From Streptomyces celluloflavus (GTDB lineage Bacteria; Actinomycetota; Actinomycetes; Streptomycetales; Streptomycetaceae), in the NCBI GenBank assembly GCA_000720995.1, contig JOEL01000022.1, positions 36,303 through 100,302 on the forward strand: a stretch of DNA of 64,000 nt, read 5' to 3'. The notes beneath the pieces are model-generated. The model did no database searches and was not told where the DNA came from. It saw only the letters and a list, made by a program, of their open reading frames with translations. Every line of letters starts with the position of its first letter. Within the stretch, counting starts at the first letter, position 1. Below, in pieces: positions 25,123-41,565 of the stretch. The position numbers were made by a program, and so were the translations under genes.

Positions 25123-25378
25123 GTGATCACCGTGGTGGGACGTGCGGATCTCAGTGTCCGGACGCCGAAGCTGCTGGAGCACGAGCTGCGCGGAGCCCTG
25201 GAGCGTCCGGCACCGCTGGGGACGGCGCTCGTGCTGCGCGTCGGCTACGGGGTAGCGGTGGCGGCCGCGCGCGGCTGCGAAGGTCAGGGTGCCTCTGGTG
25301 GTGGTGCTGCCTTCGCCACGGGCTCTGGGCGCGCTGCTCCCGGAGCGCGACAGGGTGGCCGCCGGCGAAACGCTGTCA
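25123..25378 (+). pseudogene. Truncated SLOG-like protein remnant
   Basis: Starts at a GTG with ITVVGRADLSVRTPKLLEHE, the beginning of a Rossmann/SLOG-like nucleotide-binding protein seen after such operons. After AAARGCE the frame shifts to VPLVVVLPSPRALGALLPER and then ends against the convergent propeller gene. Probably a decayed last gene of the ArsR operon. Confidence 0.45.
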
Positions 25379-27634
25379 GCGCGTACCCACATCCAGCGTC
25401 CAGTAGTGCTGGATTTCGGTGCTGCCCGGCGGTCGGACCTGGTGGTAGTAACCCACGCCGGCTTCCAGGGACGCGCAATTGAGGATGAGGTTGCGGTGCA
25501 ACCAGTGCCATGTCGAGTCCCTCTGCATCCAGTACTCCACTGCCTGAGCAGGACTGGGGGCAGGATCGGGCTGCCCCCACTGGAAGTAGACGTTTTCCCC
25601 AGGGGTGTGGTAGCCCGCGAGGTCCATGGGTTCGCCACTTTCCCATACCAGTTTCCCGTCAGGCCCTCGATGCATGTTCGAGTCCTGCTGGACTTGGTCG
25701 CTGGGAACGGTGGACAGGTAACTGCTGTGGTCGTACGCGATGTTCCTGAGCTGCTGGGAGAACTGGAAGGGGTTGGGACAGCCGCTCAACTTCGCTTCTC
25801 CCAGCGGATCCGGCTCAAGAAGGGGATACAACTCCGGGTGTGTCCGTGCGCGGTTGACCAGATCGAAGAGCTCTTGCTCCAGCGGATCCGGCGTGGGGCT
25901 GGCACCCGAGGTGATCTGTCCGATCCTGCCGCTGAAATACTCGGTGAACCACAGGTTCCCATCCGGTCCGGACGCGATACCGAACGGGTGGCCGTCCGCG
26001 GTGGGCAGTGGGTATTCGGTGACGGATCCCGTTGAAGTGATCCGCCCGATCCGGTTGCCGGTGGATTCGGTGAACCACAGGTTTCCGTCGGCCCCGGACG
26101 CGATGGCGTACGGGGAACTGCCCGGGTTGGGCAGTGGGTATTCGGTGACGGATCCCGTCGAAGTGATCCGCCCGATCCGGTTGCCCCTGGACTCCGTGAA
26201 CCACAGGTTCCCGTCCGGGGCGGCCACGATGCCGGTCGGCCCGCTGTCGGGGGTCGGCAGGGGGAATTCGGTGACGGACCCCGCTGGCGTGATCTGCCCG
26301 ATCTTGCCACCCCAGTACTCGGTGAACCACAGGTTTCCGCCCGGCCCCGCCACGATCCCCAGCGGGCGACAGCCCCCGGTGGGCACGGTGAATTCGGTGA
26401 TGGTCCCGGCCGGGGTGATGCGCCCGACCTTGCCGTCCCAGTACTCGGTGAACCACAGATTGCCGTCGGGCCCGGCCGCGATGCCGAATGGGAAGGCGTT
26501 CGAATGGGGCACGGTGAATTCGGAGATGTTCCCGGCCGGGGTGATTCGCCCGACTGCACCGCCGTAGTACTCGGTGAACCACAGATTGCCGTCGGGCCCG
26601 GCCGTGATGCCGAACGGGAGGCTGACCGCGGTGGGCAGGGGGAATTCGGTGACGGATCCCGTCGAAGTGATCTGCCCGATCCGGCTGCCGGTGGACTCGG
26701 TGAACCACACATTGCCGTCCGGCCCGGCCGCGATCCCGAGCGGATGGCTGTTCAGTACGGGCAAGGGGTATTCGGCGATGGACCCGCCCGGGGTGACCTG
26801 CCCGATCACGCCGTTGTCGTATTCGGTGAACCACAGGTTCCCGTCCGGCCCCGCCACGATCCCGGAGGGCTGGCTGCCCGCAGTGAGCACGGGGTGTTCG
26901 GTGATCTCCCCGCCCAAGGTGATCCGTCCGATCTGGTTGCCGGCGCCCTCGACGAACCACAGGTTGCCGTCCGGCCCGGCCGCGATGTCCCACGGGGAGC
27001 TGTTCGAGCTGGGGATGGGGTGTTCTGTGATGTTCCCGCCCGGGGTGATCCGTCCGATCTGGTTACCGTTGGACTCGACGAACCACAGGTTGCCGTCCGG
27101 CCCGGCCGTGATCCCCGTCGGCCCGCTGCCCGCGTCGGTCAGCGGGTGTTCGGTGATGGACCCGTCCGCGGTGATCTGCCCGATCACACCGTTGTTGTAC
27201 TCGGTGAACCACAGATTGCCGTCCGGCCCGGCCGTGATGCCCCACGGGAAGCTGTTCGGGCTGGGGATGCGGTAATCGGTGATGGTTCCGTCCGGGGTGA
27301 TCCGCCCTATCATGCCGCTGTCGTATTCGGTGAACCACACGTTCCCGTCCGGGCCGGCCGTGATCCCCGTCGGCCCGCCGTCCGGGGTGGGCAGGGGATA
27401 TTCGGTGATGGCTCCACCCGGGGTGATCTGCCCGACCAACCCCCTGTCGTACTCGGTGAACCACAGATTGCCGTCGGGCCCGGCCACAACGTCCCAGGGG
27501 TAGGGGGAGCTACCCGGGGCGGACAGGGTGTATTCGGTGACGATCCCGGGGAGGGCCGCGGCCGACGCGCCTGCCTGGAGGGAATTCCGCAGACGACCTC
27601 GACGAAGGCCATGCGGGGTGAAGGGTGTGGGCAT
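25376..27634 (-). CDS. Vgb-like beta-propeller fused to CAP domain
   Basis: A 752-residue protein. Residues about 30-575 are 13 tandem repeats of 42 residues with consensus GPDGNLWFTEYxxGxIGxIT, the repeat of streptogramin B lyase (Vgb)/NHL-type propellers. Thirteen to fourteen blades suggest two propellers. Residues about 580-752 are a CAP/SCP-like domain: LEQELFDLVNRARTHPELYP, GENVYF and HWLHRNLILN with His residues typical of the fold. No classical signal peptide is evident, which is odd for a CAP protein. The Vgb lyase catalytic role is not assured; such propellers also bind ligands or proteins. It may act with the adjacent giant-protein operon, from which it is separated by Tn3 debris. 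Confidence 0.75.
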   Translation of the reverse strand: MPTPFTPHGLRRGRLRNSLQAGASAAALPGIVTEYTLSAPGSSPYPWDVVAGPDGNLWFTEYDRGLVGQITPGGAITEYPLPTPDGGPTGITAGPDGNVWFTEYDSGMIGRITPDGTITDYRIPSPNSFPWGITAGPDGNLWFTEYNNGVIGQITADGSITEHPLTDAGSGPTGITAGPDGNLWFVESNGNQIGRITPGGNITEHPIPSSNSSPWDIAAGPDGNLWFVEGAGNQIGRITLGGEITEHPVLTAGSQPSGIVAGPDGNLWFTEYDNGVIGQVTPGGSIAEYPLPVLNSHPLGIAAGPDGNVWFTESTGSRIGQITSTGSVTEFPLPTAVSLPFGITAGPDGNLWFTEYYGGAVGRITPAGNISEFTVPHSNAFPFGIAAGPDGNLWFTEYWDGKVGRITPAGTITEFTVPTGGCRPLGIVAGPGGNLWFTEYWGGKIGQITPAGSVTEFPLPTPDSGPTGIVAAPDGNLWFTESRGNRIGRITSTGSVTEYPLPNPGSSPYAIASGADGNLWFTESTGNRIGRITSTGSVTEYPLPTADGHPFGIASGPDGNLWFTEYFSGRIGQITSGASPTPDPLEQELFDLVNRARTHPELYPLLEPDPLGEAKLSGCPNPFQFSQQLRNIAYDHSSYLSTVPSDQVQQDSNMHRGPDGKLVWESGEPMDLAGYHTPGENVYFQWGQPDPAPSPAQAVEYWMQRDSTWHWLHRNLILNCASLEAGVGYYHQVRPPGSTEIQHYWTLDVGTR
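25895..27545. repeat. Thirteen 126-bp tandem coding repeats
   Basis: The propeller repeats are also visible in DNA as imperfect 126-bp units (for example the recurring GGTGAACCACAG and GTCCGGCCCGG on the plus strand). High identity between some neighbouring units points to expansion by recombination; blade number may vary between strains. Confidence 0.8.
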
Positions 27635-28670: not shown

Positions 28671-29846
28671 TCAGACGCGGACGGGAGGCTCCTGCGGGCC
28701 CAGCGGGTACCAGAACCACTGGGCCGCGCCATAGGATTTGCCCCCTCTGTCCTTGTTCGGCCATTCCGCCATGCATCGGATGGTGTCATCTGTTTTGAAC
28801 GGCTGGGTTGCCGATCCGGCATCGAAGTCGCGACCGTTACTGGTCAGGTACACGGTGGCGGCCTGGACTTCGCGGTACAAGTGGCGTACCGACGCCGAAG
28901 CGGTTGGTCCGTCGGGGAGATCGAAAACTCTCATTTTGAGGACGACGAACCCCGGGCCCTGGACCCGGAATTCGGCCTCCCAGTCGCGCACCTCACCATC
29001 GGGACTCCTCGTCGACTCGAGAAGCAGCACCTCGTCCTGGATGAGCCCTTCCAGCGGGCCACGGAAGGTGGTGCGCCCGGCGATGTCGAGGTGGCCGATC
29101 TCCAGGTCGGGCCGTTCGACCATCACGGCGGTGGTCAGGGTGTGTGTCAGCGTCTGACCGCCGGCGGTCACCGTCGCTTGCAGCATGAAGCCGGTGGGGG
29201 TGGTCAGTGGTTCGGGGGTGGTCCACTCCCGGACGCTCGAAACGTCCTGGGAGGAGTTGCGGGCCCAGAACATCGTGTAGGCGGCGTCCGTGCTTCCGTC
29301 CCATTTCAGGACCGCGTGCTCGCCGTTGGCAACCATGACCTTGGTCGGGCGGAAGTTGCGGAACACGAACTCCGCCGGGAACTTCATCACCGAAGCCACG
29401 GTCGTTTTCGGGGTGAAGGATTCTTTGGTCAGGGAGGTCTCTTCGATGATCTCGATGCCCGCCTCGCCGACCGTTTCATTCACCTCGATCTGTGAGATGA
29501 CCAGAGTGACAGCGCGCTCAATGATCTGCACCGGCGGCCGTTCCGGCACGAACTCGAACACCTGCCAGGTGTCGTCGGCGAACCCGGGGCGTGCGGTCCA
29601 GTCGCTCGCGCCGACGACGGCCGAGGTGAGCTGCGCGCCGTTCTCGGTGAGCGCCGTGGCGCCCGCGCCGATCGGGATCCGGACGGTGACACTCTTGCAG
29701 TAGGCCGAGCCTGAGTTCCCGGGGCCGAGCGTGATGTCCAGCCGGCCCATGACCGGGTCCTTGTCCGTGGACACCGTCAGAGGCTCGGGGTCCGGCTCGA
29801 TCGCGTAGCCGAGCAGCGAGTCGGCGGCCAGTACGGTCATTCCCAT
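28671..29846 (-). CDS. Unknown protein, last gene of giant operon
   Basis: A 391-residue protein of unknown family, predicted to be beta-rich: LDITLGPGNSGSAYCKSVTV, VTLVISQIEVNETVGEAGIE, and LILQ-type hydrophobic alternation throughout. No signal peptide or membrane helix is visible. The first segment (MGRLDITLGPGNSGSAYC) looks like an immunoglobulin-like sandwich. The start at 29846 has AAGGGA upstream, and it begins 14 nt after the previous stop in the operon. Function unknown. Confidence 0.7.
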   Translation of the reverse strand: MGMTVLAADSLLGYAIEPDPEPLTVSTDKDPVMGRLDITLGPGNSGSAYCKSVTVRIPIGAGATALTENGAQLTSAVVGASDWTARPGFADDTWQVFEFVPERPPVQIIERAVTLVISQIEVNETVGEAGIEIIEETSLTKESFTPKTTVASVMKFPAEFVFRNFRPTKVMVANGEHAVLKWDGSTDAAYTMFWARNSSQDVSSVREWTTPEPLTTPTGFMLQATVTAGGQTLTHTLTTAVMVERPDLEIGHLDIAGRTTFRGPLEGLIQDEVLLLESTRSPDGEVRDWEAEFRVQGPGFVVLKMRVFDLPDGPTASASVRHLYREVQAATVYLTSNGRDFDAGSATQPFKTDDTIRCMAEWPNKDRGGKSYGAAQWFWYPLGPQEPPVRV

Positions 29847-29860
29847 GGAGGAGGGTCCCT

Positions 29861-32800
29861 TCAGTCTCGGGGCTTCAGTTGCAGATATCCGGCGCGCGCC
29901 TCGGCGACCGGCTCACCCGGATACGCGTACGTGTCCGCCATCGCGATCGGGAACTCCAGCCACTCCGGCACGTCCTCGCCCCGGTCCCGGGGCTCGGCCC
30001 AGGTCCAGTCGCCATGCCACGCCGCCGGGTGCGGCATGACGATCGAGTCCTCTTCGAGCCCTGATCCCGGTCCCGGCCCCCGCGCGAACGCCGCCTCGTC
30101 CTCCGACGTCGGCGGCCGGGCCACCGCGAGCAGCGGGTGGAGCCGGAACGATGCCCGGATCCGTGCCAGCGAGGCGTGGACGAAGTCCGCGTCCAGGGCG
30201 AGGCGGGCGACCGGCAGGATGTCGGTCGTGGCGTGCACGGCGGCGTGTGGGTCCATCAGGACGGTGAGGTGGTGCGTGACGGCGGCCTCGCCGGGGAGCG
30301 TGCCCGGCAGTGCCAGGCCGCTGCCGGTGCCGACCGGTTGCAGATAGGAGTGCGCGTCGGTCGGCTGCTCGGTGAACAAGGTCGTATAGCTGACCGCGCC
30401 GTCCGGGCCGGAGGCTGAGGCGAAGTAGCCGATCAGGCCGTCGGTCAGCCGCTCGGCCGAACCCAGCCGGACCGGCCACCGGTAGCCGTCGCGGCCCGGG
30501 TAGTCCTGGCCGGAGGCGGTGTCCACCGAGGCGGTTCCGGTGACCACGCCGTCCGAGGGCGGGATCGGTGCGGTGCTCCAGCCCGGGTCGGTCAGTGGCA
30601 GGCCCTGCAGGTCGATCGCCAGGTCGGCGGCGACCAGTGCCACCGGACTGCCGATGAGCCGGGACGGGACCGCGTCGTCCTGGGCCGACGGGTCCACGAT
30701 GCCGTCCAGCGCCCCGTCGATCGTCTCCAGCAGCGCCGCGAACGCCAGGTGCGGCGAAGTCTGGCCGCGCAGCCCCGCGATGAAGCCGGCCAGGCGCGGG
30801 TAAGCGGCGGTGAACCCGGGCGACGCCGGGTCGGGGAAGGGCGAGTGGGGGAGCGGGTTCCACGCGATTTCCCGGGTGGTGTTGAGGCCCCGCATCTCGC
30901 CCAGCGGCGAGCCGTCCGATGCGTAGACCATCAGCGTCTCGTCCAGCCGGTTGGCCAGTAGCCACCCGGCGACCGGCGTGGCGGGCGTTCCGGCGTCCCG
31001 CGCCGTCGGGGCGGCGGGAGAGGAAGAGACGGTGCCGTCCAGGGCGGGCGCGGCGGCCAGCCGTACCCGTGCCGGCTGCAGCAGGCGTGGCGGCAGCTGG
31101 ATGAACCGCCGCGCGCCGATCGGGTCCGGATACAGCGGTTTGCGCGCGTCGGGCAGGACGCTGAGAGCGCGGATGGGTGAGAAGCGCTCGTAATTGTTCT
31201 GTGCGCCGTTGGTGAGGTCCACGACCCGCCCGAAGCGGTCGATGATCCGCAGGTCGTAGAAGAAGAACTGCCCGGCGCGGACTGGCTGGAAGGTGTCGTC
31301 GGCGGGACCGGTGCCGCTGTGGCCGCTCGGTGCGGGCCATGAGGCCGCGTCGCCGAGCAGCGGTTCCAGGGCGGACGGGACCGGGATCCGGGACCGCAGC
31401 GGCCGGGCCACGCCGCTCCGCGTCAGCAGCCAGTCGTGGAATCCGTCCAGGGTCTGCGACAGCATGTCCAGGTCGGCTGCGTCTTCGCGGAGTTGGCGCA
31501 CGCCCATCGCCTCGGCGTCCGGATACGTCTGCAGGTACCGGTCCAGCTGCCGTTCCACCGCGTAGCGCACGGTCGGTGCCAGAAAGGACCGGCCCCTGAA
31601 GATCCGCCGCAGTGACGACGAAGCGTCCTGGGCGGTCGATCCGGTGCCCTTCCACGTGTACGCGTTCCCGTCGAACTCCCAGTGCTCGGTGCCCTCGGTC
31701 CGGAACGGAGTGGGGACATACCGCACGTCCCACTGGAGATACATCGGCAGCCAAGGCTGCTTCCAGAACGCCGTGTACTGCGCCAGGCTCCCGGTGATGT
31801 TGAGGTCGGGGTGTGCGATCGCGTTGTGCAGGGCGGTCGGGCCGGGGGCGGCGGCCGGTGTCCACGCCGCCTTGTCCAGCAGCGCGAACTCCGCGAGCAG
31901 CGAGGCGATCAGTGGCGGGAACCCGTCGAGCCGCGGCGCCGGGGGGTTCGTCGGTACCTCCTCGAACGAGCTGCCGATCTTGAGCGAGCGCAGCAGGTCT
32001 CCGGCGAGCCGCACCGGCAGCGGCTCGTCGCGCGCCAGCGGCTCGGTGATGTTGGCGCCCTCGATGACGACGACCGGGTCGGCCGGTGTGTAGTAGTTCT
32101 CCGACATCTCGCGCTGGAGCGCCATCCCCTCCGGAACGTCGACGTCCGGCCGGGCGACGAACTCCGCGATCGCCGCTTCCAGTTCCTCGGGCGTATCGCC
32201 GCGCGGCAGGCCCTGCGCGAGCGCCGCCACCTTCTCGTACTGCGCCTTGGTGAGCTTGGCGATGGACGGCTTGCCGTCCGGGCTCGCCGCCGGGTCGAGC
32301 TGCGCGTCGGCGGCCGCGTCGAAACCCGGCGCGTGCGCACCCTCGCGCGTCGCCCGGTTCCGGAGGAACCACAGCGTCCAGGTCCGCCATTGCAGGCTCC
32401 GGAGCTTCGGCAGCTCGGTGTCGTAGGCGGCCTGCTGCGTGCCGAGCCGTACCAGCCACTGCGGATCGGTCGCCCGTGCGGCGCGGCGTGCGGCGGCGCT
32501 GCCCTCGGCGTCGTCGCCGAACCCGTCCCCGCGCCGCTCCACCAGCCGCCACGCGTAGCCGGCCTCGTGCCCCGCGAACCAGGTGCTGCGCAGCGCCTCG
32601 TCCAGCTCGTGGTCCCCGCCGGGGGAATCGAAGGAGTCGATGGTGCCGTGATAGAGGGCCGACAGCAGGTCCCCGGCCTCGGCCGAGCGGGTCTGGAGCG
32701 TGGTCAGTGCGGCGGCGGCGTCGCCGATGCTGTGCCCGACGGCGACCTTGAGGGGGTCGTTGACGGGGTCGGGCTTGTCCGACGGCGGCTGGTAGTTCCG

Positions 32801-33697
32801 CTGCCTCCAGGTGACGCCCAGCGCGGTGCCGGCATACAGCGTGTTGCGGAGAGCATCTGGGACAGTGCCGGGCAGAGCCCACCCGAGCGCTTCCAGCACG
32901 GCCTCGGGATCGGTGCGGTCCGGCGGCAGCAGGCCGGGGATGGTGAGCGCCCGCGCCAGGATGTCGGCGGGTTGCTCGGAGTACCAGCCGACGGCCAGGT
33001 AGGACAGCCGGTTGTCCGGCGGGTAGGTGTCGATCGTGCCGTCTTTGAGGTCTTCGAGGTCGTCGTGGAAGGAGAAGACGCCCTCGTGGTACGGCTCGTA
33101 GGCGGCGAAGGCCGGCAGTCCGGGCCCGACCGCGGTCAGGAACGGCTCGCGCCGCCCCGGATCGGTCCACGGCTCGTCCGTGACATCGGTGACCAGGCTG
33201 AGGAAGGTGGTCTGCGCCGACTCCGGATCCCGGAACCGCGGCACCTTCAGCTCGGCCAAGTCGTCCCGGTCGGGGTAGTCGCTCTCCAGGTAGTCGCTGT
33301 GCACGAGCCAGCCCTTGGCATGCACCGTGTTCCGGTCCGCCGGCGTCCGCTGTCCCCTGGGATCGAAGTACCGCACGATCAGCCACCGATTCGGCACCAG
33401 CGGGAACGATGTCACCTCGGTCTTCTCGTCGTAGTGCCCGGTGGCGAGTGCTTCGGGGAACTGCCACTGCAGACGGACCCCGAACGGCACCTGCTCCTCG
33501 GCGCCCTGCCCGGCCGGCGGTTCCGGCGGGGTGCCTTCCGCCAGCATCAGCTCGTAGTCCGTGCGCCAGCGGGAGAACGGCCCGCCGGCGGAGTTCACCA
33601 TGTCGTTGGAGACCAGGGCGTGGAGCCGGATCGGGACGATCAGGTCGGTCGTGCCGCCCAACTCCGTGCCCGCGGCGGGTTCGATGGCTTCGGTCAT
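29861..33697 (-). CDS. Unknown 1278-residue protein, giant operon
   Basis: A very large protein with no recognised domain. It starts MTEAIEPAAG and then has TDLIVPIRLHALVSND, FPLVPNRWLIVRYFD and MYLQWDVRYVPTPF. Overall it is acidic and Trp/Tyr/Pro-rich, alternating helical and strand-like stretches, without signal peptide, membrane helices or nucleotide motifs. The phrase FGVRLQWQFPEAL and the repeated LLxxRFxQLPPRLLQPA-type lines suggest structural or assembly roles; that is inference. I start it at the ATG at 33697, one nucleotide beyond the previous stop, because the GTG at 33715 lies in the ribosome-binding site GAAGGAGG. Confidence 0.75.
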   Translation of the reverse strand: MTEAIEPAAGTELGGTTDLIVPIRLHALVSNDMVNSAGGPFSRWRTDYELMLAEGTPPEPPAGQGAEEQVPFGVRLQWQFPEALATGHYDEKTEVTSFPLVPNRWLIVRYFDPRGQRTPADRNTVHAKGWLVHSDYLESDYPDRDDLAELKVPRFRDPESAQTTFLSLVTDVTDEPWTDPGRREPFLTAVGPGLPAFAAYEPYHEGVFSFHDDLEDLKDGTIDTYPPDNRLSYLAVGWYSEQPADILARALTIPGLLPPDRTDPEAVLEALGWALPGTVPDALRNTLYAGTALGVTWRQRNYQPPSDKPDPVNDPLKVAVGHSIGDAAAALTTLQTRSAEAGDLLSALYHGTIDSFDSPGGDHELDEALRSTWFAGHEAGYAWRLVERRGDGFGDDAEGSAAARRAARATDPQWLVRLGTQQAAYDTELPKLRSLQWRTWTLWFLRNRATREGAHAPGFDAAADAQLDPAASPDGKPSIAKLTKAQYEKVAALAQGLPRGDTPEELEAAIAEFVARPDVDVPEGMALQREMSENYYTPADPVVVIEGANITEPLARDEPLPVRLAGDLLRSLKIGSSFEEVPTNPPAPRLDGFPPLIASLLAEFALLDKAAWTPAAAPGPTALHNAIAHPDLNITGSLAQYTAFWKQPWLPMYLQWDVRYVPTPFRTEGTEHWEFDGNAYTWKGTGSTAQDASSSLRRIFRGRSFLAPTVRYAVERQLDRYLQTYPDAEAMGVRQLREDAADLDMLSQTLDGFHDWLLTRSGVARPLRSRIPVPSALEPLLGDAASWPAPSGHSGTGPADDTFQPVRAGQFFFYDLRIIDRFGRVVDLTNGAQNNYERFSPIRALSVLPDARKPLYPDPIGARRFIQLPPRLLQPARVRLAAAPALDGTVSSSPAAPTARDAGTPATPVAGWLLANRLDETLMVYASDGSPLGEMRGLNTTREIAWNPLPHSPFPDPASPGFTAAYPRLAGFIAGLRGQTSPHLAFAALLETIDGALDGIVDPSAQDDAVPSRLIGSPVALVAADLAIDLQGLPLTDPGWSTAPIPPSDGVVTGTASVDTASGQDYPGRDGYRWPVRLGSAERLTDGLIGYFASASGPDGAVSYTTLFTEQPTDAHSYLQPVGTGSGLALPGTLPGEAAVTHHLTVLMDPHAAVHATTDILPVARLALDADFVHASLARIRASFRLHPLLAVARPPTSEDEAAFARGPGPGSGLEEDSIVMPHPAAWHGDWTWAEPRDRGEDVPEWLEFPIAMADTYAYPGEPVAEARAGYLQLKPRD

Positions 33698-33698
33698 C

Positions 33699-35975
33699 TC
33701 AGCGGCCTCCTTCACGAGTGCTGCCGGGCATCAGCAGCTGCTCCAGCGGCGCGTTGACGAGTTGCACGGCGAGCTGTGCCGGATGCAGGTCGGACAGCGA
33801 GTGCGCCTGCGCGAGCGGCTTGATCAAGCCATCGTCTCCTTCGAGGCGGAGGACGTCAGCGATGCCGCCTTCCTGCGGCGGGCGGAGATACTCGGAGAAC
33901 ACCGTGTCCGAGCCGGTGGGGGGATACTCGCCGGGCAACGTGGCGCCCAGCGGCGGGTCTTGGCCGGCCCTGAGCTGTCGGAGTCCGATCACCTCGCGTC
34001 CGGCGGAGTCGGTGTCGATGCCGAAGTGGATGCCCTCACTCGGTTCGCGGATGAGCACGTGGTCAGGGACGTCGTCATACAGGCACAGCAGAATGTCCGA
34101 GGCCACCGGCTCACGCCGGATCTCCGTCAGCTCCCGCGTCCCCTTCTTGGCGACGACGATCATGTCCGGCCACGCGGGCACCAGGTCCGAGCGCATCAGC
34201 AGCCCGGCCACCGGGTAGCCGGAGCGGTCCCCGGACCGCGTCGCGGTCCGCAGAGACCGGTCGCAGCGCTGGTCGAGGGAGGTGTGCACGGCCACGTCGC
34301 GAGCCCCGGCCAGCAGCGCGTCGAGCCACACCGGGTCGACGCGGAACAGGCGCAGCGACTCCTCGGGCAGCATCCGGAAGTCCGGCATCAGAGAGGAGAA
34401 CGGCACCGAGCGCAGGGTCCTGAGTTCGGTGAGCCGGTCGGCCAGTGCCCCGGCCCGGTGGCTCGCGACCGACAGCAGTGCCGCGGCCCGGGAGTCGTCG
34501 TCGAGCGAGGCGCGGGCGTCGGCCCGGCTCAGCCGGGCGAGCGGAACGGGCCCGGGCACCGCCTCCTGTGGAAGCTGCGGCGCGCCGAGCGCGTCGGTCA
34601 GCGTCCGGCCGCCGCGGTTCGCGGCCAGGCGGGCCAGGGCACTGAGACCGAACCGGGTCCCGTCGGCCGACGAGACGTCGACCGCGGAGCGCACCGGGTC
34701 GTTCGCCACGGCCATCATCCGCACCGCCGTGTTCGCCAGCTCCCGCCGCGCCCGCGTCACCTCCTTCCCGTAGGACGGGTCGGCCAGCGCCACGGTCCGG
34801 CCGAGCGTCCAGGCGGCGGCATAGGAGACGTCGAAGACGCCATAGGTACGGTCGTAGACGAGAGCGAAGTCGGCGGTGGTGTGCGCGCTGGAGGTGTCCA
34901 ACGCCGGGATCTCCTGCGCCGTCAACGGCGTGAAGGGCCCGCGATACCACGCGTAGGTGTGCTCGCCGGTGATCGGCCGGTGCGGCACCGGCACGTACCC
35001 CAGGTGCAGCCGCTCCAGCGCGTACGCCTCCGCCGCGCTCGGCGAGCCGGGGGCGTTCGCCGGACGCGGCATCCGCAGTGCCAGGTTCTCCGCATCGGTG
35101 TTGCCCGGCGCCACGAGGTTCGCCAGGATCCCGGGCGCGTCGAACGCCGCCGCCGGATCGTTCCGGAACGACCACGACCACAGTGACACCAGCCGGACAC
35201 GTTCGACCTTTGGCGGCAGCTCGCCGTCCAGATGCTTGTCGAAGCCCTCCAACGACACCAGATGGACCGCGTAGTCGCCTTCGCCGCGCGGGAACCGGTT
35301 GGCGGTGACCACGCTGAATGTTCCCTTGATCAGGATCTCGCCGTCCGCCATCAGCTTCGGCTCGTCGACGTCGCGGACGTGCGCCAGGTAGTAGAGCTCT
35401 TGCCTGTGCGGCGCAACGGCCGTGAACACCGGCGCCGGGACGTCGATGGTCCGGCAGTTGCCCGCCGGCGCGGGCTCGTCGAGACCGGTCAGCGCCGGAC
35501 CGAGCACCGTCTCATCGTCCTCGGCGAGCAGTTCCTCCACCGTCCGCTCCGTCGTCAGGGCCAAGCCCTCGGGGTCGTCGGGCAGTTCCCCGGCCCTGAA
35601 CAGCATCAACGCCAGCCACGGCGCGCGCCGCTCCGCCCGTGACCACTTCGGCTCCCGCTCCCACGGCAGGTACGCGCGGGTGAGGGTGATGTGCGGCAGC
35701 ACGAGCCCGAAGTCGCCGTCCGCACCGCGCGCCGGATAGACCGCCTGCACGGTCGCGCCATCGAGCATGAACTGCGGCGCGCGGATCTCGAACTCTTCGG
35801 TGGCGTGGGGCAGCGGATCGCTGCTGTCGACCGGGGTCGTGCCCTCCATGAGGGTGTGTTCGACCTCGATCGTGTACTTCCCGGCGGTCGCGGCCGGGCT
35901 CATGTGGTCGATGAAGGTGACGTCCAGCAGCTCTTGTGAGGCGCGGGTGCCGGCGGTGAAGGGTCGGGTGGCCAC
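33699..35975 (-). CDS. Unknown 758-residue protein, giant operon
   Basis: A 758-residue protein of unknown family, starting MATRPFTAGTRASQELLDVT. It has ITLTRAYLPWEREPKWSRAE, APWLALMLFRAGELPDD and ETHTYAWYRGPFTPL-like segments, all suggesting a folded cytoplasmic protein. No secretion signal or transmembrane helix is seen. The GTG start at 35975 is 4 nt after the DUF6603 stop, and its own stop is 1 nt from the next start, so the four proteins are made together. It could be a partner or shell component for the DUF6603 protein; this is inference. Confidence 0.75.
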   Translation of the reverse strand: MATRPFTAGTRASQELLDVTFIDHMSPAATAGKYTIEVEHTLMEGTTPVDSSDPLPHATEEFEIRAPQFMLDGATVQAVYPARGADGDFGLVLPHITLTRAYLPWEREPKWSRAERRAPWLALMLFRAGELPDDPEGLALTTERTVEELLAEDDETVLGPALTGLDEPAPAGNCRTIDVPAPVFTAVAPHRQELYYLAHVRDVDEPKLMADGEILIKGTFSVVTANRFPRGEGDYAVHLVSLEGFDKHLDGELPPKVERVRLVSLWSWSFRNDPAAAFDAPGILANLVAPGNTDAENLALRMPRPANAPGSPSAAEAYALERLHLGYVPVPHRPITGEHTYAWYRGPFTPLTAQEIPALDTSSAHTTADFALVYDRTYGVFDVSYAAAWTLGRTVALADPSYGKEVTRARRELANTAVRMMAVANDPVRSAVDVSSADGTRFGLSALARLAANRGGRTLTDALGAPQLPQEAVPGPVPLARLSRADARASLDDDSRAAALLSVASHRAGALADRLTELRTLRSVPFSSLMPDFRMLPEESLRLFRVDPVWLDALLAGARDVAVHTSLDQRCDRSLRTATRSGDRSGYPVAGLLMRSDLVPAWPDMIVVAKKGTRELTEIRREPVASDILLCLYDDVPDHVLIREPSEGIHFGIDTDSAGREVIGLRQLRAGQDPPLGATLPGEYPPTGSDTVFSEYLRPPQEGGIADVLRLEGDDGLIKPLAQAHSLSDLHPAQLAVQLVNAPLEQLLMPGSTREGGR

Positions 35976-35979
35976 GGTG

Positions 35980-38900
35980 TCAGCTCGCCATCGTCGTCGG
36001 GAGCACCAGCGGTGCGTCGGTCAGGGTGGTCTGCGCGCGGGCCGCGTACGTGTCGAGCGCGCCGTCGGCCTGCGCGTAACCCCAGCGCCCCAACGCGTCG
36101 TGGACGGCTGTCCGTCTGGCCGTCACGCCGCTCGTGGCCAGGGTGTCGGCGATCAGACGCGGGCTGGCCGGGTCGGCGGCGGGGACCGGCCCGGTGGGGG
36201 CCGCCTCGCGCAGCGGCATCCGGCCTTCCGGCAGCGCCTCCACGCCGAGCGCCTCGGTGCTGATCGGCCCGATCTCGTCCCCGGCCGAGGGATCGGGGAC
36301 CTCGATGCGCAGGCCGACGAGGTGGCCGGGGAGCAGGCCCTCGTCCAAGCCCGGCTCGCCCGGCGCGCCCCACAGCGCACTCGGCACGTCACGCCTGATC
36401 TGGGTGATCGTCCAGCCGTACTGCTGCCAGGAGAACTCGCTGTCGTTGCGTTTGATGGTGACCCGGTGTTCGGAGGTCAGGTCCCGCTTTCCCATGGGGC
36501 GGATGTCGACGGTTTCGCCGTCTTCACCGAACGAGACGTTGTTGACGTAGGTCTGCGACGCGGGCAGCGCCGAGGTGGTCTCCACGATGAACCCGGCGGC
36601 GGTGATGGCGGTCGGCGCGTGCGCGGTGGTGCGGGCCGCGAGCTCGGCGGGGTCGAGGTCCGGCAGCAGCCCGGCGAGCGGGGTGATGGCCAGCGGATCG
36701 GGCAGCTGTTGGCGGAACTCCCGCCAGTCCTGCGGCGGCAGCGCGGGCCGGGAGGCTCCGAACCCGAAGCTGAAGCTGACGAACCAGACCTTGACGCCGG
36801 CCCGGCCGCCCAGCGGCGGGGTCCACAGGTCGATGCCCACGCCCACTTCGATGGAGACCCGGACCTTCACGAACCAGACCTTGATCGTGAAGGCGACGCC
36901 GATGCGGACGCCGACGTTCACTTCCAGGTAGAAGGGGTTCCACTGGATCAGGGCGTCGACATACGCGGTGAACCAGGCGGACAGCAAGCCCTTCTCATAG
37001 CGGGCCTCCAAGCGGCCACCGGCCATGATCGCATTCGGGGTGAGCGCGGTGTACACCTGAGAACTGACACGGATGTTGTTGTCCGGCGACCAGATGAAGC
37101 CCATGCGGGCCGGCTGCGGATAGTGCGCGGGGACCTTGTAGGAAGGGTGGTACCCGCCGGCGGTGATGGCGAAATCACCCCGGCTCGGACCGCCGGTCCA
37201 GACGTAGACGGCGATGCCGCCGGTCAGACGCGCGGACTCGTGGAAGAGGAACGAGCCGTCGGCGACGGCGATATCCATCGACAGCAGACCCTCGCGGCCC
37301 TCGTAGCCGAGCCGGAGGTCGATGTTGAGCCGGGCCTGGACCTTGCGGCCTGGCCGGGCGTTCTTGGGGAACGTCACCGTGGTGCGGCCCAGCAGCATCA
37401 CGGCCAGCTCGTTGCCGAACGCGACCACGGCCAGGGCACGGGACTGGATGAACTTGAACGAGGTGAACTGGACGCCGACCGCGCCCCAGTAGCTGCCGGA
37501 CACCGGCCGCACCCACGCATCCGGGCCCATCAGCAGCTCCAGGATCTCCTGCGGCGACGGCGACCCGGAGCCGGTCAGGCGTCGGACGAGCGGGAACTCT
37601 CCGACCTCGTCGACCGCCGGCAGCCGCACGTCACTGTTGACACCGAAGCCGCCGGACAGCCCGGTGACGGTGAACGCCGGCGGTCCGAACAGGGCCACGT
37701 CGCCGACACCGCCGGCCTCGCCGAACAGGAAGACCGAGGACCAGCCGTCACGGCTGCGGGCGTAGGTGCCCAGCGCAGCCATGGCGAAGAACGTCCCCTC
37801 GACCGCGGCCGAGCCACCGAGCAGCACGGCAAAGCCGGGGTCGGGCCGGTTCTCGAACGCGCCGGCGATGCTGAGCGGTGGCTTGTCCATGCGCAGGGCC
37901 GCTCCGGACAGCACCGGCCGGGCCTCGGGCGCGGCGAAGTCGGCGTCGACGGCGATGCCCAGGCCCAGCAAGGCGAACTCGACCGGGCCGACCCGGAGGG
38001 TCGCGTCGAAGGCGAGGAAAACACGCTGATCGGTGTAGCCGACGGCGATCCGCTTCAGGCGCAGTGGGCCGATGGCGAGATCGAGGTCGCGGCCGGCGTC
38101 GAACGACTGGGTCCGTCGGGCGGGGAGGTTGCCGCCGCCCCGGCGGTTCCAGATCTCCAGGACCAGGGGCGGCTGCTCGTCCCCGCCGAAGGTATAGGCA
38201 AGGGTCAAGCAGAGCCCTGCGATGGGGGCTTGCTCAGGGAAAGCGGGCATCACGGCGGAAACTACGCCGTCCGGGGCCACCGGGACCGGGGCTTCCAGGC
38301 CGGTCGGGAACGCCACCGTGTCGACCCGCCCGTATGCCGCCGCGCTGAACTCGCCCACTTCCGCCAGCAGTTGGTTCGCCGCTACGGCGACTGCTCCGTC
38401 CCAGCCCGCCGAGGTGAGTGCGAATCCGACGCCTTCCATCGCCACGTCGCGGTCCGCCGGGATCAGGTCCCCGACCATCGGCAGCTGCGTGGCCGCGGCG
38501 CGGAGCCCCAACCGGGCCGCCACGCCGAACGCACGGTCCACCGACGCGAACGCCCACGACGTGAATCCGGCCGCCGCCGCGAGTGCCGCTCGCCGGGCAC
38601 CGGGCTCGTACCACAGCGTCAGGGAGTCCAGCCGGGGCAGCAGCGCGGCCGGAGTGCCGGCCGGGCCGCTGAGCCCCAGTGCCGACAGCAGGTCCAGGCC
38701 CTCGACCGGCTCGTTGCCGGCGTCCCACCGCGCCGCCAGCCACTTCCCGGCCTCGTCCCGCGCAGCCTGCACGGTGAAGCTCATCGTCCGGGTCGGCAGC
38801 GTCAGCTCCAGCGTCCCGGAGACGGCCGTCTCGCCGCTGCTCAAGGCGATCCGCAGCTCCAGTGCCGCACTCTTCTCGCCCAGGACGACGGTGCTGTGCA

Positions 38901-40278
38901 GCACCACGGTGACGTTCGCCTGGTCATCGAACTCGACGAGCAGCTCTTCGATGGCCAGGTCCGCGACGAACGCCGGTGGGGCGATCCCCACTGCGGCGAA
39001 CACGTCCGCGGGCCGGATGCCGGATCCCTGAGCCTGGAACGACCAGCCGACGCCCGTCCAGGCTCCGGTGACGTCCAGTGTTCCCGTATCGCCGATCCGC
39101 CACTGCGCGCTCACCTCGCCCGCGGTCTCGCCGCCGAAGTTCGAGACGGTCAGCGTCACACCGGTCAGCTCGATCCGGTCACCGCCGACGCGCCAGGCGT
39201 TCCGCAACGTGGCGGAAAAGCTGTAGCCGCGGGCCGGCGACGGGTTCAGGTCGCCTTCAACTGTCAGCGCGCTGACCATCGCGTCGGCGGGGACACCCAT
39301 CCCCGGCGGCAGCGAGGCGGTCAGCGCGGCCAGCGGGAAAGGCTCGGTGAGCGTCCCGCTCAGAGCCTTGCCCGGGTAGCCGACGTGCACCTCCACGAGC
39401 ACGTCGGCCCCCAGCCGCACCCGCCCACCGACACCGACCACCAGCACCGGGGACCCGCTCAGCGGATTCTCGACCTGGAACTGCGCAGCCAGGTCCTCGA
39501 TCCTCAGCACGCCGGGGATCGCATCCCACTCGGTCCCGAGCGAGACCGTCATGCTCGCGTCCAGCCAGTCGTACTCCACGGCTTGCCCACGCGAGTACCG
39601 CGCGGTCTGCCGCGGTACGAACGCGATTGCCAGCCCGGTCAAGGCGAGCGCGACGGCACCGGGCACATCCGGCGGCAGCTGGAAGTCACCGGGCCGCAGG
39701 TTCGCGAAGTCCAGCAGGTCGTCCAGGCTCTCCAGCGGCACGTCAGGGAACGTGCCGGTGACGAACCACTGCCGGCCCGAGCCCAGCGGCACGTATCCCC
39801 ACACGTAGGGCTTCGGATCGGCCCCGGAGTCCGGGAAGTTCAGGTCCACCCCGAACCCGAGCCGGCCCTGCGCCCCGCCGCCGGCTTTCGGCTCGGCCCC
39901 GAACACCACATGCAGTGCGCCGAGCCCGACGCGTTCCAGAGCGGCCGGGATCTCCTTCACCTCGTCCGGCAGCCCCTCGCCCTCGGGTAGCCGAACGTCC
40001 ACCCGCACTCCGGCAACGTACGCCCACGCTTCGTCCGGCAGGAAGCACACGGTGGCTGCGGAGGTCACCCGCGAGGCCAGCCGGATCGTGCCGGCCACGG
40101 ACAGCCGTTCCACGTCCGCGGCGACGTCGCTGACGAGGTCGATCACACCGTCCGGAAGGAAGCGCCGGAAGAGATCGAGGACGTCCGGGATGCCGAGGTC
40201 GACCGGCCCGACCTGGAATGAGCCCTCGCCCTGGGCGATCTCCAGGGCCTTGCGAAGATCGCTGACGGAAAGCGGCAT
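35980..40278 (-). CDS. DUF6603-domain giant protein
   Basis: A 1432-residue protein heading the operon. Around residues 1000-1140 it shows the hallmark of DUF6603: LTGGIAVYVWTGG, GDFAITAGGYHPSYKVPAHY, YTALTPNAIMAGGRLEARYE and AWFTAYVDALIQWNPFYLEV. DUF6603 proteins occur in bacteria and fungi and have no established function. Most of the chain consists of repeated amphipathic beta strands (VGPVEFALLGLGIAVDADF, AMAALGTYARSRDGWSSVFL), which could form a long beta-sheet groove or barrel. No signal peptide is visible. The start is the ATG at 40278. Confidence 0.8.
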   Translation of the reverse strand: MPLSVSDLRKALEIAQGEGSFQVGPVDLGIPDVLDLFRRFLPDGVIDLVSDVAADVERLSVAGTIRLASRVTSAATVCFLPDEAWAYVAGVRVDVRLPEGEGLPDEVKEIPAALERVGLGALHVVFGAEPKAGGGAQGRLGFGVDLNFPDSGADPKPYVWGYVPLGSGRQWFVTGTFPDVPLESLDDLLDFANLRPGDFQLPPDVPGAVALALTGLAIAFVPRQTARYSRGQAVEYDWLDASMTVSLGTEWDAIPGVLRIEDLAAQFQVENPLSGSPVLVVGVGGRVRLGADVLVEVHVGYPGKALSGTLTEPFPLAALTASLPPGMGVPADAMVSALTVEGDLNPSPARGYSFSATLRNAWRVGGDRIELTGVTLTVSNFGGETAGEVSAQWRIGDTGTLDVTGAWTGVGWSFQAQGSGIRPADVFAAVGIAPPAFVADLAIEELLVEFDDQANVTVVLHSTVVLGEKSAALELRIALSSGETAVSGTLELTLPTRTMSFTVQAARDEAGKWLAARWDAGNEPVEGLDLLSALGLSGPAGTPAALLPRLDSLTLWYEPGARRAALAAAAGFTSWAFASVDRAFGVAARLGLRAAATQLPMVGDLIPADRDVAMEGVGFALTSAGWDGAVAVAANQLLAEVGEFSAAAYGRVDTVAFPTGLEAPVPVAPDGVVSAVMPAFPEQAPIAGLCLTLAYTFGGDEQPPLVLEIWNRRGGGNLPARRTQSFDAGRDLDLAIGPLRLKRIAVGYTDQRVFLAFDATLRVGPVEFALLGLGIAVDADFAAPEARPVLSGAALRMDKPPLSIAGAFENRPDPGFAVLLGGSAAVEGTFFAMAALGTYARSRDGWSSVFLFGEAGGVGDVALFGPPAFTVTGLSGGFGVNSDVRLPAVDEVGEFPLVRRLTGSGSPSPQEILELLMGPDAWVRPVSGSYWGAVGVQFTSFKFIQSRALAVVAFGNELAVMLLGRTTVTFPKNARPGRKVQARLNIDLRLGYEGREGLLSMDIAVADGSFLFHESARLTGGIAVYVWTGGPSRGDFAITAGGYHPSYKVPAHYPQPARMGFIWSPDNNIRVSSQVYTALTPNAIMAGGRLEARYEKGLLSAWFTAYVDALIQWNPFYLEVNVGVRIGVAFTIKVWFVKVRVSIEVGVGIDLWTPPLGGRAGVKVWFVSFSFGFGASRPALPPQDWREFRQQLPDPLAITPLAGLLPDLDPAELAARTTAHAPTAITAAGFIVETTSALPASQTYVNNVSFGEDGETVDIRPMGKRDLTSEHRVTIKRNDSEFSWQQYGWTITQIRRDVPSALWGAPGEPGLDEGLLPGHLVGLRIEVPDPSAGDEIGPISTEALGVEALPEGRMPLREAAPTGPVPAADPASPRLIADTLATSGVTARRTAVHDALGRWGYAQADGALDTYAARAQTTLTDAPLVLPTTMAS

Positions 40279-40584
40279 GACTGCATCAATCCCTTGTCAT
40301 GGCAGATAGCAGGGATCACCGTGGAGTGATGGAGTGTGATCGAAAGATGACCGTGCGATCCTGGAACCTAGCGCCGCTCTTTCGATGAGAGGGCGCCAAT
40401 CTCCCAGCATGGCGCAAAAGCGTCGTTGGCGGTCTGTAGCGCGAGATATCACGCGCGTCCACCGGGTCGACGGCCGAGCGGGTCCCTCTATGAGAGCTGC
40501 GATTCTCCCCGCATGACCGGCAGGGGCCTATCTTCGCTGAGCTGTACAAACTCTCCCAGGACCGGTGGGAAATCCGGCTACGGT
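40279..40584. other. Upstream region of giant operon
   Basis: No gene. ATCCCT (40289-40294) and AGGGAT (40311-40316) form a small inverted repeat close to the operon start and may be regulatory. I see no clear promoter hexamers. The stretch ends at the shared hairpin element. Confidence 0.3.
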
Positions 40585-40656: not shown

Positions 40657-41240
40657 TCACTCGTCCCCGTCGTCATCGTCATCGAGCTCGGCGGTGGCCG
40701 GGTCGCGCAGCGGGCGCAGGTTCCGGCGCGAGGTGGAGGGGGCGAAGCTGTAGCGGCCCAGGACGTTGAGGCTCTTGAACTTCAACGGGGAGAGGCGGGT
40801 GACATCCTCATCGCTGATCTCGTGGCCCTCGGCACGCAGCTGGGCGACCGCGGCGTCGAGTACTTCGTCGTCCAGAGCGCAACTGCGTTCAAAACCAGCC
40901 CGAACGACCCGAGTTGATCTTCCATGCCATCCCGGTATGCCAGGTGGATCGTGCCGTGCTTGCCGTGGCAGATGTCCCGGGCAAGGGTGTGGCGGGGCTC
41001 CCGGACGCTGAGCTGCTTGCCCATCTGCCGCCGGTAGGTGTCATCGACCGGGTCGACGACCTGGAGCAGGTGCAGGGTCTTGGCGATGCGCCCGCATTCG
41101 GCGAACGCCTGCCCCAACGGGGCCGGCTTGCCCGCGCGGCCGAACATCCGCAGCAGGTCCCGGTCCTCACAACGGAGGGCCGCGTCACGCTGATCGACGG
41201 GCTGCTGGCCGCCGCCGTCCTCCTCGGCCTCCTCCTCAAC
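40657..41240 (-). pseudogene. Tn3-type transposase C-terminal remnant
   Basis: Reads LLRMFGRAGKPAPLGQAFAE, CGRIAKTLHLLQVVDPVDDT, YRRQMGKQLSVREPRHTLAR, GTIHLAYRDGMEDQLGSFGL and VLNAVALWTTKY. A frameshift follows, then GHEISDEDVTRLSPLKF, LNVLGRYSF and NLRPLRDP with stop at 40657. This is the C-terminal third of a Tn3-family transposase, including the region of the final catalytic Glu. The 5' part is lost near 41,200. Confidence 0.75.
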
Positions 41241-41337
41241 ACTGTCCTCGGCTGGTGGTGGGCCGACCCGGGGGCCGGCTACCCACTGGTCTGCTGCACA
41301 ATCCGCGAAGTACGGGAGATCTTCTCCTCCGAATATC

Positions 41338-41379
41338 GAACACCGAACACCGAACGCCGAACGCCGAACGCCGAACACC
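41338..41379. repeat. Six heptamer tandem repeats
   Basis: Six consecutive copies of CGAACAC/CGAACGC (41338-41379). Seven is not a multiple of three, so this is not coding periodicity. It sits just beyond the broken 5' end of the transposase remnant. Confidence 0.8.
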
Positions 41380-41565
41380 GACCGGCGGCCTGAACGTCGC
41401 GCTGACTCTCTTGCCCCTGGTGACAACTCCCTTAAAGGAAGGTCTTCCTTGGGTTCGGTTTTCCGAGGGTTCTTCGGCGGGAAATCGGGTGCCCAGTGAT
41501 GTCATAGGCTCCGGATTGAAGCTTCACTTTGTGGGGGATCTCGCGGATCGAAGAGTTGACTTACG

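What the first reader, a model, noticed from the sequence alone, without database searches (positions are those of the whole stretch)
28671..40278. Four-gene operon of giant proteins headed by DUF6603: candidate undescribed system
Seen: four minus-strand genes of 1432, 758, 1278 and 391 codons separated by 4, 1 and 14 nt, with no stop or frameshift over 11.6 kb in a region otherwise full of wreckage, so selection is maintaining them. Known: DUF6603 occurs in bacteria and fungi without an assigned function. Inferred: stoichiometric co-production and the strand-rich DUF6603 chain suggest a large assembly or groove-like complex in the cytoplasm, since none of the four proteins shows a signal peptide or membrane helix.
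Basis: partly seen in the sequence, partly recalled or inferred. Interest (0 to 1): 0.85.

Follow-up and report, generated by a model that had tools for sequence, protein, structure and literature searches.

The report
Undescribed four-gene module with swappable fibres
Four neighbouring bacterial genes of unknown function turn out to be a widely shared unit whose last gene looks like a binding fibre with exchangeable tips, so the unit may build a protein particle that recognises chosen targets; this has not been tested in the laboratory.

Summary
Four minus-strand genes (1432, 758, 1278, 391 codons; gaps 4, 1, 14 nt) lie at 28671-40278, the first with DUF6603. They form a conserved module: of 67 loci examined, 51 carry all four genes. 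Gene 3 occurs in 45 of 297 Streptomycetaceae genomes, 44 of which also hold DUF6603. Genes 1-3 also occur on a Paenibacillus plasmid; a sister module with other partners occurs in Streptomyces and a haloarchaeon.

The new clue is gene 4: a constant N-terminus (~256 residues), repeat shaft and variable tip. In 116 of 147 pairs with similar N-termini the tails share under 30% identity. Homology to S. monomycini stops inside gene 4, near codon 256. Tandem copies reach five.

Best reading (inferred): genes 1-3 form the body of a cytoplasm-made particle and gene 4 its exchangeable receptor-binding fibres. Effector-like neighbours (M91, ADP-ribosyltransferase-like) occur in a few loci. No function is shown; structure predictions failed (pLDDT 40 and 29). 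No held paper names DUF6603. Tested features of contractile injection systems and umbrella toxins are not met.

The parts
35980..40278 (-). Gene 1, 1432 aa, DUF6603 protein
   Evidence: family in 65 of 297 Streptomycetaceae genomes
36652..38082 (-). DUF6603 domain of gene 1 (residues 733-1209)
   Evidence: PF20248, E 2.3e-132; same place
33699..35975 (-). Gene 2, 758 aa, no described family; distantly related to the second gene of type B modules
   Evidence: no match; alignment A2 of 29 rows; profile comparison with the type B gene: probability 94.7, E 5.7e-8
29861..33697 (-). Gene 3, 1278 aa (1284 aa if the GTG at 33715 is used), no described family
   Evidence: no match, only two PHROG matches at E 0.3-0.4; family in 45 of 297 genomes; 4 of 29 relatives carry an F5/8 type C domain
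28671..29846 (-). Gene 4, 391 aa, fibre-like protein
29079..29846 (-). Constant N-terminal part of gene 4 (residues 1-256)
   Evidence: conserved region of the gene-4 family; DNA homology with L002 ends at 29077
28671..29078 (-). Variable tail of gene 4
   Evidence: no significant likeness to the L002 tail (6 identities in 26 aligned residues)
28695..28973 (-). Tip domain, very diverged, shared with 52 other gene-4 proteins
   Evidence: tip profile hit E 1.2e-13; 53 of 78 tails carry it
40279..40423 (-). Upstream stretch conserved with S. monomycini, probably the promoter region (inference)
   Evidence: end of the 89% identical block, aligned; no sigma-70-like site found

Best explanation
The four genes encode a protein particle made in the cytoplasm. 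The DUF6603 protein and the products of genes 2 and 3 form its body. Gene 4 makes a fibre that joins the body by its constant N-terminal part and shows an exchangeable tip to a target surface. Changing or adding gene-4 copies would change the target. The particle would be released by lysis or an unknown route, and some lineages may load effector proteins from neighbouring genes. Shown: the conserved module, the constant/variable split of gene 4, tip exchange, and tandem copies. Inferred: physical assembly, fibre role, release, target binding and cargo.
For: Fixed order DUF6603-gene2-gene3-gene4, all four in 51 of 67 loci. 44 of 45 gene-3 genomes also have DUF6603, the exception being a 36-residue fragment. 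DUF6603 proteins of type A (with gene 3) and type B (other partners) lie on the two sides of one branch with support 100, 56 and 15 rows, so partners track the DUF6603 lineage. Gene 4: 147 pairs with N-terminal identity of 55% or more, of which 116 have tail identity under 30%, e.g. 97% N-terminus with 5% tail in the same locus (L058); the converse, 75% tip identity over 115 residues with 34% N-terminal identity (L058/L079). Window/L002 homology ends within gene 4. Of 65 gene-4 proteins scanned, one or two each match PLAT (8e-16), F5/8 type C (9.5e-13), haemagglutinin repeat (7.6e-6), FapA (5e-4), adenovirus shaft (0.0025) and a tail-fibre PHROG (2e-4). Up to five tandem gene-4 copies (L058). 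Hemopexin-repeat genes sit between gene-4 copies in L043 and L056. M91 'effector' genes: between genes 3 and 4 in L068 (E 2.9e-5, 24.9 bits against a cut-off of 25) and about 3 kb beyond the module in L049 (E 2.0e-6, above cut-off); an ADP-ribosyltransferase-like gene 3.6 kb upstream in L069.
Against: No assembly, secretion, binding or toxicity is shown. Profile searches of solved structures found no relative of genes 1-4, and both structure predictions are unusable. The window's own locus has no obvious cargo gene. The effector-like gene cluster occurs in 5 of 54 type A loci, is backed by Pfam in only 3 of them, and stands on the opposite strand in 2 (L050, L056). Matches of gene-4 shafts to fibre families come from one or two of 65 proteins and are mostly weak. 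Divergent gene-4 relatives occur alone: 15 of the 60 gene-4 genomes lack DUF6603; 17 of 18 such loci fetched fall in two clusters without obvious shared neighbours, and none of the 18 hits the tip profile. One gene-4 protein found a single marginal phage match (E 0.003), another none.
Confidence: 0.45

Rival explanations
1. The module builds an adhesive or structural complex of the producing cell itself (surface attachment, hyphal contacts or biofilm), with gene 4 as a variable adhesin; no delivery of toxins.
For: Ligand- or surface-binding domains (PLAT, F5/8 type C, hemopexin) in or beside single gene-4 copies; effector-like genes in only 5 of 54 loci; solitary relatives with shafts and no tip-profile hit.
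Against: No signal peptide or membrane anchor is visible in any of the four window proteins; strong turnover of tips is more typical of target recognition under changing targets (inference).
Confidence: 0.25
2. An intracellular beta-rich scaffold or storage/lipid-handling assembly; gene-4 shafts would resemble bactofilin-like polymers.
For: No export signal; one of 65 gene-4 members (E 0.0035) and two of ten solitary relatives (sub-cut-off) match Bactofilin.
Against: Exchange of whole tips between lineages and tandem tip variants have no evident role inside the cell; PLAT and F5/8 type C domains usually bind surfaces or ligands (recalled).
Confidence: 0.15
3. A remnant or derivative of a phage tail or contractile injection system.
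For: Fibre-like gene 4; a tail-fibre PHROG matched by 2 of 65 members and a baseplate-wedge family by 1.
Against: Genes 1-3 have no PHROG match above chance; no phage record matches gene 1; one-pattern scans of viral contigs found no gene 1 or gene 2 relative; sheath genes lie elsewhere in the same genomes (nearest 43 kb, a sub-cut-off match, next 158 kb, among 53 module places). Gene 3 was not searched in phages or viral contigs.
Confidence: 0.07
4. A defence or conflict system protecting the host from phages or plasmids.
For: Patchy distribution, plasmid copies, and a clustered upstream gene in 11 of 54 loci, one of which was scanned and is a metallo-beta-lactamase-fold protein.
Against: No PADLOC match; exchangeable fibre tips are not a feature of the defence systems I know (recalled).
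Confidence: 0.05

Closest known systems
Umbrella toxin particles of Streptomyces (Umb)
   Same: Streptomyces multi-protein system; there, large particles with several diversified lectins and polymorphic toxins (PMC11062931: abstract and section 4 read; PMC13274773: start of abstract in a listing). Here, diversified gene-4 tips are analogous.
   Different: UmbC has a TAT signal and ALF repeats; none of the four window proteins has a Pfam match besides DUF6603, and none shows an export signal.
Extracellular contractile injection systems and their tail fibres
   Same: Modular fibres with constant N-terminal anchor, repeat shaft and exchangeable tip (PMC12923769: passages and section 6 read).
   Different: No sheath gene next to the modules; genes 1-3 match no described family apart from DUF6603; DUF6519 (eBAP5) is not among the Pfam families matched by 65 gene-4 members. 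eBAP1-4 could not be compared here.
Tc toxin complexes
   Same: Large multi-subunit protein toxins (recalled).
   Different: No Pfam match of genes 1-4 to Tc families.
DUF6603 family (PF20248)
   Same: Gene 1 is a clear member.
   Different: The family has no described function; no held paper contains DUF6603 or PF20248.

Membership tests
DUF6603 (PF20248) | match above the curated cut-off | tested here: met
   442.6 bits against a cut-off of 27
Extracellular contractile injection system | sheath gene in the locus | tested here: not met
   PF04984 found in 38 of 44 module genomes, but of 53 module places only 19 share a contig with a sheath match, nearest 43 kb (sub-cut-off match), next 158 kb; in draft genomes a neighbour on another contig cannot be excluded
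Extracellular contractile injection system | known baseplate-anchor domain on the fibre (eBAP1-5) | tested here: inconclusive
   DUF6519/eBAP5 not among Pfam matches of 65 gene-4 members; eBAP1-4 models not at hand
Umbrella toxin | UmbC with ALF repeats | tested here: not met
   no such match in genes 1-4 at E up to 1; definition from PMC11062931 section 4; that Pfam holds an ALF model is recalled
Umbrella toxin | TAT export signal on UmbC | tested here: not met
   first 40 residues of all four proteins read by eye; no prediction program was run
Tc toxin | TcA/TcB/TcC domains | tested here: not met
   no Pfam match besides DUF6603 in genes 1-4; domain list recalled
Phage tail or prophage | homologues of the core in phages or viral contigs | tested here: not met
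   gene 1: no phage record and no viral contig (one pattern); gene 2: no viral contig (one pattern); gene 3 not searched there
Phage-type tail fibre (gene 4 only) | constant anchor, repeat shaft, exchangeable tip | tested here: met
   sequence architecture only, over the family; the window's own shaft is short
Phage-type tail fibre (gene 4 only) | trimeric fibre fold and receptor binding | tested here: inconclusive
   structure model pLDDT 40, single chain; binding not testable here
Known anti-phage defence systems | PADLOC model match | tested here: not met
   no match of genes 1-4

The most novel reading that the evidence does not exclude
A new class of non-contractile, cytoplasm-made targeting particle: a DUF6603-based body that carries swappable fibres, spread among Streptomyces, other actinobacteria and Paenibacillus, with a sister form in haloarchaea, and in some lineages armed with effector proteins such as M91 proteases or ADP-ribosyltransferases.
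Probability: 0.3. Interest if true: 0.92.

Novelty: categorically new. Interest (0 to 1): 0.78.

Why it matters
Three of the four protein families have no entry in the libraries searched and no relative found among solved structures, yet gene 3 of the module is in about 15% (45 of 297) of the Streptomycetaceae genomes sampled, and genes 1-3 reach another phylum. If it is a targeted particle, it adds a delivery or binding machine to a group famed for small-molecule antibiotics, and its natural tip exchange would show how targets are changed. It also gives DUF6603 a first testable role.

Tried and rejected
Family searches of genes 2-4 in Pfam, NCBIfam, PHROGs and PADLOC found nothing above chance. 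A RidA-like hit of gene 1 residues 567-672 among solved structures (E 2e-4) was judged compositional; it was not tested further, since the gene 1 profile begins after that stretch. Profile searches of solved structures for genes 1-4 gave only E-values of 0.25 or more. The tip profile matched best two designed Ig-like proteins (E 1.2e-4 and 3.2e-4) and everything else at E 0.076 or more, in line with a beta sandwich but naming no relative. Scans of viral contigs with one pattern each for genes 1 and 2 and of phages for gene 1 found nothing. Structure prediction of gene 4 and of 698 C-terminal residues of gene 1, each with a two-row alignment, gave pLDDT 40 and 29; no fold search was made on them.

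An apparent gene 3-gene 4 fusion in L037 was rejected: the open frame runs through a stretch of N. A gene 1-gene 3 fused frame in L093 is taken as a deletion remnant. The CATRA and CHAT genes near L006 and the baseplate-V genes near L007 were set aside because they were not seen to recur among the flanking clusters (which did not include L007). The window has no tRNA gene that could mark an island. The idea that gene 4 occurs only in the module was rejected. A gene-2 search over the family failed, so gene 2's independence from DUF6603 was tested only phylum-wide and in the loci. The gene caller used on fetched loci is a heuristic of my own and can miss or misplace genes.
Full report
OBSERVATION. 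The coding signal is real: GC at codon position 3 is 0.85-0.91 against 0.49-0.53 at position 2. Between the window and Streptomyces monomycini (L002, found) a block at 29077-40423 is 89% identical, and YN00 dN/dS is 0.144, 0.098 and 0.078 for genes 1-3 (NG86 0.36, 0.31, 0.27). For gene 4 only NG86 ran (0.64, tail included); YN00 failed. ORF length alone would not be enough, because an antisense ORF of 1407 aa overlaps gene 1.

IDENTITY. Gene 1 holds DUF6603 at residues 733-1209. Genes 2-4 match no family above chance in Pfam, NCBIfam, PHROGs or PADLOC. The genome (8.68 Mb, 193 contigs) holds one DUF6603 match, one DNA copy of gene 2, one gene-3 match and one gene-4 match.

THE MODULE RECURS. 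Of 67 loci examined (window, L002-L007, and 60 regions of at most 20 kb around DUF6603 matches in Streptomycetaceae genomes), 51 have all four genes, 2 have genes 1-3, 4 have genes 1-2, 1 has genes 1, 3 and 4, and 9 have only DUF6603. The 60 regions were chosen from 82 matches; one match is the window itself, and fragments and some other matches were left out. In the sample of 297 genomes DUF6603 is in 65, gene 3 in 45 and the gene-4 N-terminus in 60. Of the 45 gene-3 genomes 44 have DUF6603; the exception, G144, is a 36-residue fragment. 50 of 53 gene-3 loci lie within 12 kb downstream of a DUF6603 match on the same strand; the others are G107 (gene 3 lies upstream), G207 (different contigs) and G144. 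Phylum-wide, DUF6603 is in 9 of 296 and gene 2 in 4 of 296 genomes, the four being among the nine. Plasmids of Streptomyces, Embleya and Paenibacillus polymyxa carry the module or genes 1-3. A Paenibacillus sonchi plasmid has genes 2 and 3 without a DUF6603 match.

A SISTER MODULE. DUF6603 proteins of 12 of the 67 loci, and of the plasmid loci L108-L110, form type B. In these 15 loci the called genes include a giant protein cluster (about 1200-2300 aa) in 14 and a gene-2-like cluster in 9. The latter is distantly related to gene 2 (profile comparison probability 94.7, E 5.7e-8); the former shows no relation to gene 3. L108 is from a haloarchaeon plasmid. In a tree of 71 DUF6603 regions, types A (56) and B (15) fall on the two sides of one branch with support 100 (quick method, several long branches). 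So each DUF6603 lineage keeps its partner set.

GENE 4 IS FIBRE-LIKE. The profile finds 94 ORFs in 52 loci; 78 pass the length filter used for tails. The family has a constant N-terminal part, in many members short repeats, then tips. In the window and L002, DNA homology stops at 29077, at about codon 256 of gene 4; before that 188 of 252 aligned residues are identical, after it 6 of 26. Among 73 gene-4 proteins with a tail of at least 60 residues, 147 pairs have N-terminal identity of 55% or more, and in 116 of these under 30% of the shorter tail is identical; in the other 31 the tails are more alike, as ordinary relatives would be. Conversely a tip is shared at 75% identity over 115 residues by proteins with 34% N-terminal identity (L058/L079); of 12 tip-sharing pairs, two have N-terminal identity of 34%, one of 50% and nine of 78% or more. 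53 of 78 tails hold one diverged tip superfamily, including the window's (E 1.2e-13). Other domains are rare: F5/8 type C and PLAT in one member each of 65. Matches to haemagglutinin repeats, FapA, adenovirus shaft, Bactofilin, a baseplate wedge and a tail-fibre PHROG come from one or two members each and are mostly weak. Tandem copies reach five (L058). Solitary divergent relatives exist: 15 of the 60 gene-4 genomes lack DUF6603. 18 solitary loci were fetched; 17 fall in two clusters without obvious shared neighbours, none hits the tip profile, and the five read show shafts.

NEIGHBOURS. In 54 type A loci, 11 have a same-strand gene just upstream that clusters together; the one scanned (L063) is a metallo-beta-lactamase-fold protein. 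A cluster in 5 loci contains effector-like genes: M91 in L068, between genes 3 and 4 (24.9 bits against a cut-off of 25), and in L049 (28.7 bits); a Pertussis_S1-like ADP-ribosyltransferase in L069 (E 4e-6; Scabin-like 0.009, sub-cut-off); L050 and L056 were grouped by BLAST only and lie on the opposite strand. Hemopexin-repeat genes lie between gene-4 copies in L043 and L056; the gene in that place in L066 has only sub-cut-off propeller matches. Of the 20 proteins scanned, six were ordinary enzymes, a regulator or a transposase and five had no match (one of these a gene-4 piece). Only these 20 of the flanking genes were scanned. The window's own neighbour at 25376-27634 is a virginiamycin-B-lyase-like propeller with a CAP domain, outside the block shared with L002.

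MECHANISM. The simplest reading is a body of genes 1-3 bearing gene-4 fibres. The steps shown are the module, co-inheritance, constant/variable split and tip exchange. The steps inferred are assembly, surface display of tips, release without a signal peptide, and delivery. The adhesin rival is the hardest to exclude.

COMPARISON. Contractile systems: sheath genes exist in 38 of 44 module genomes, but not near the modules. Umbrella toxins: ALF repeats and TAT signal (PMC11062931 section 4) were not found in the four proteins. Fibres of contractile systems share the modular plan (PMC12923769, section 6). No held paper contains DUF6603 or PF20248; three topic searches served comparison only, and papers outside the held library were not searched. 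Novelty is given as categorically new because, apart from DUF6603 itself and the fibre-like plan of gene 4, no tested membership was met, not because the function is known.

Noticed in passing
window 25376-27634: 752-aa protein with virginiamycin-B-lyase-like propeller repeats and a C-terminal CAP domain, same strand as the module.
   Followed up: partly
window 40782-41426: Short minus-strand fragment upstream of the module whose end looks, from memory, like the C-terminus of a Tn3-type transposase; not searched.
   Followed up: no
window 35767-39990: Antisense ORF of 1407 aa overlapping gene 1, most likely a high-GC artefact.
   Followed up: partly
L108 9823-24501: Type B DUF6603 module on a plasmid of the haloarchaeon Natrinema gelatinilyticum.
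   Followed up: partly
L110 1-20606: Streptomyces longwoodensis plasmid: type B module beside a peptidoglycan-binding protein, an FG-GAP protein and an RHS gene.
   Followed up: no
L111-L128: Solitary relatives of gene 4 in two clusters without obvious shared neighbours; the five read have repeat shafts.
   Followed up: partly
L059, L063, L064, L065, L083, L085: Short proteins of about 160 residues holding only the first domain of gene 4, near the end of gene 3 and before a full gene 4.
   Followed up: no
L057 14222-16951 and L047 8893-10200: An amidase_2 gene and a LysM gene directly downstream of the core genes in single loci.
   Followed up: no
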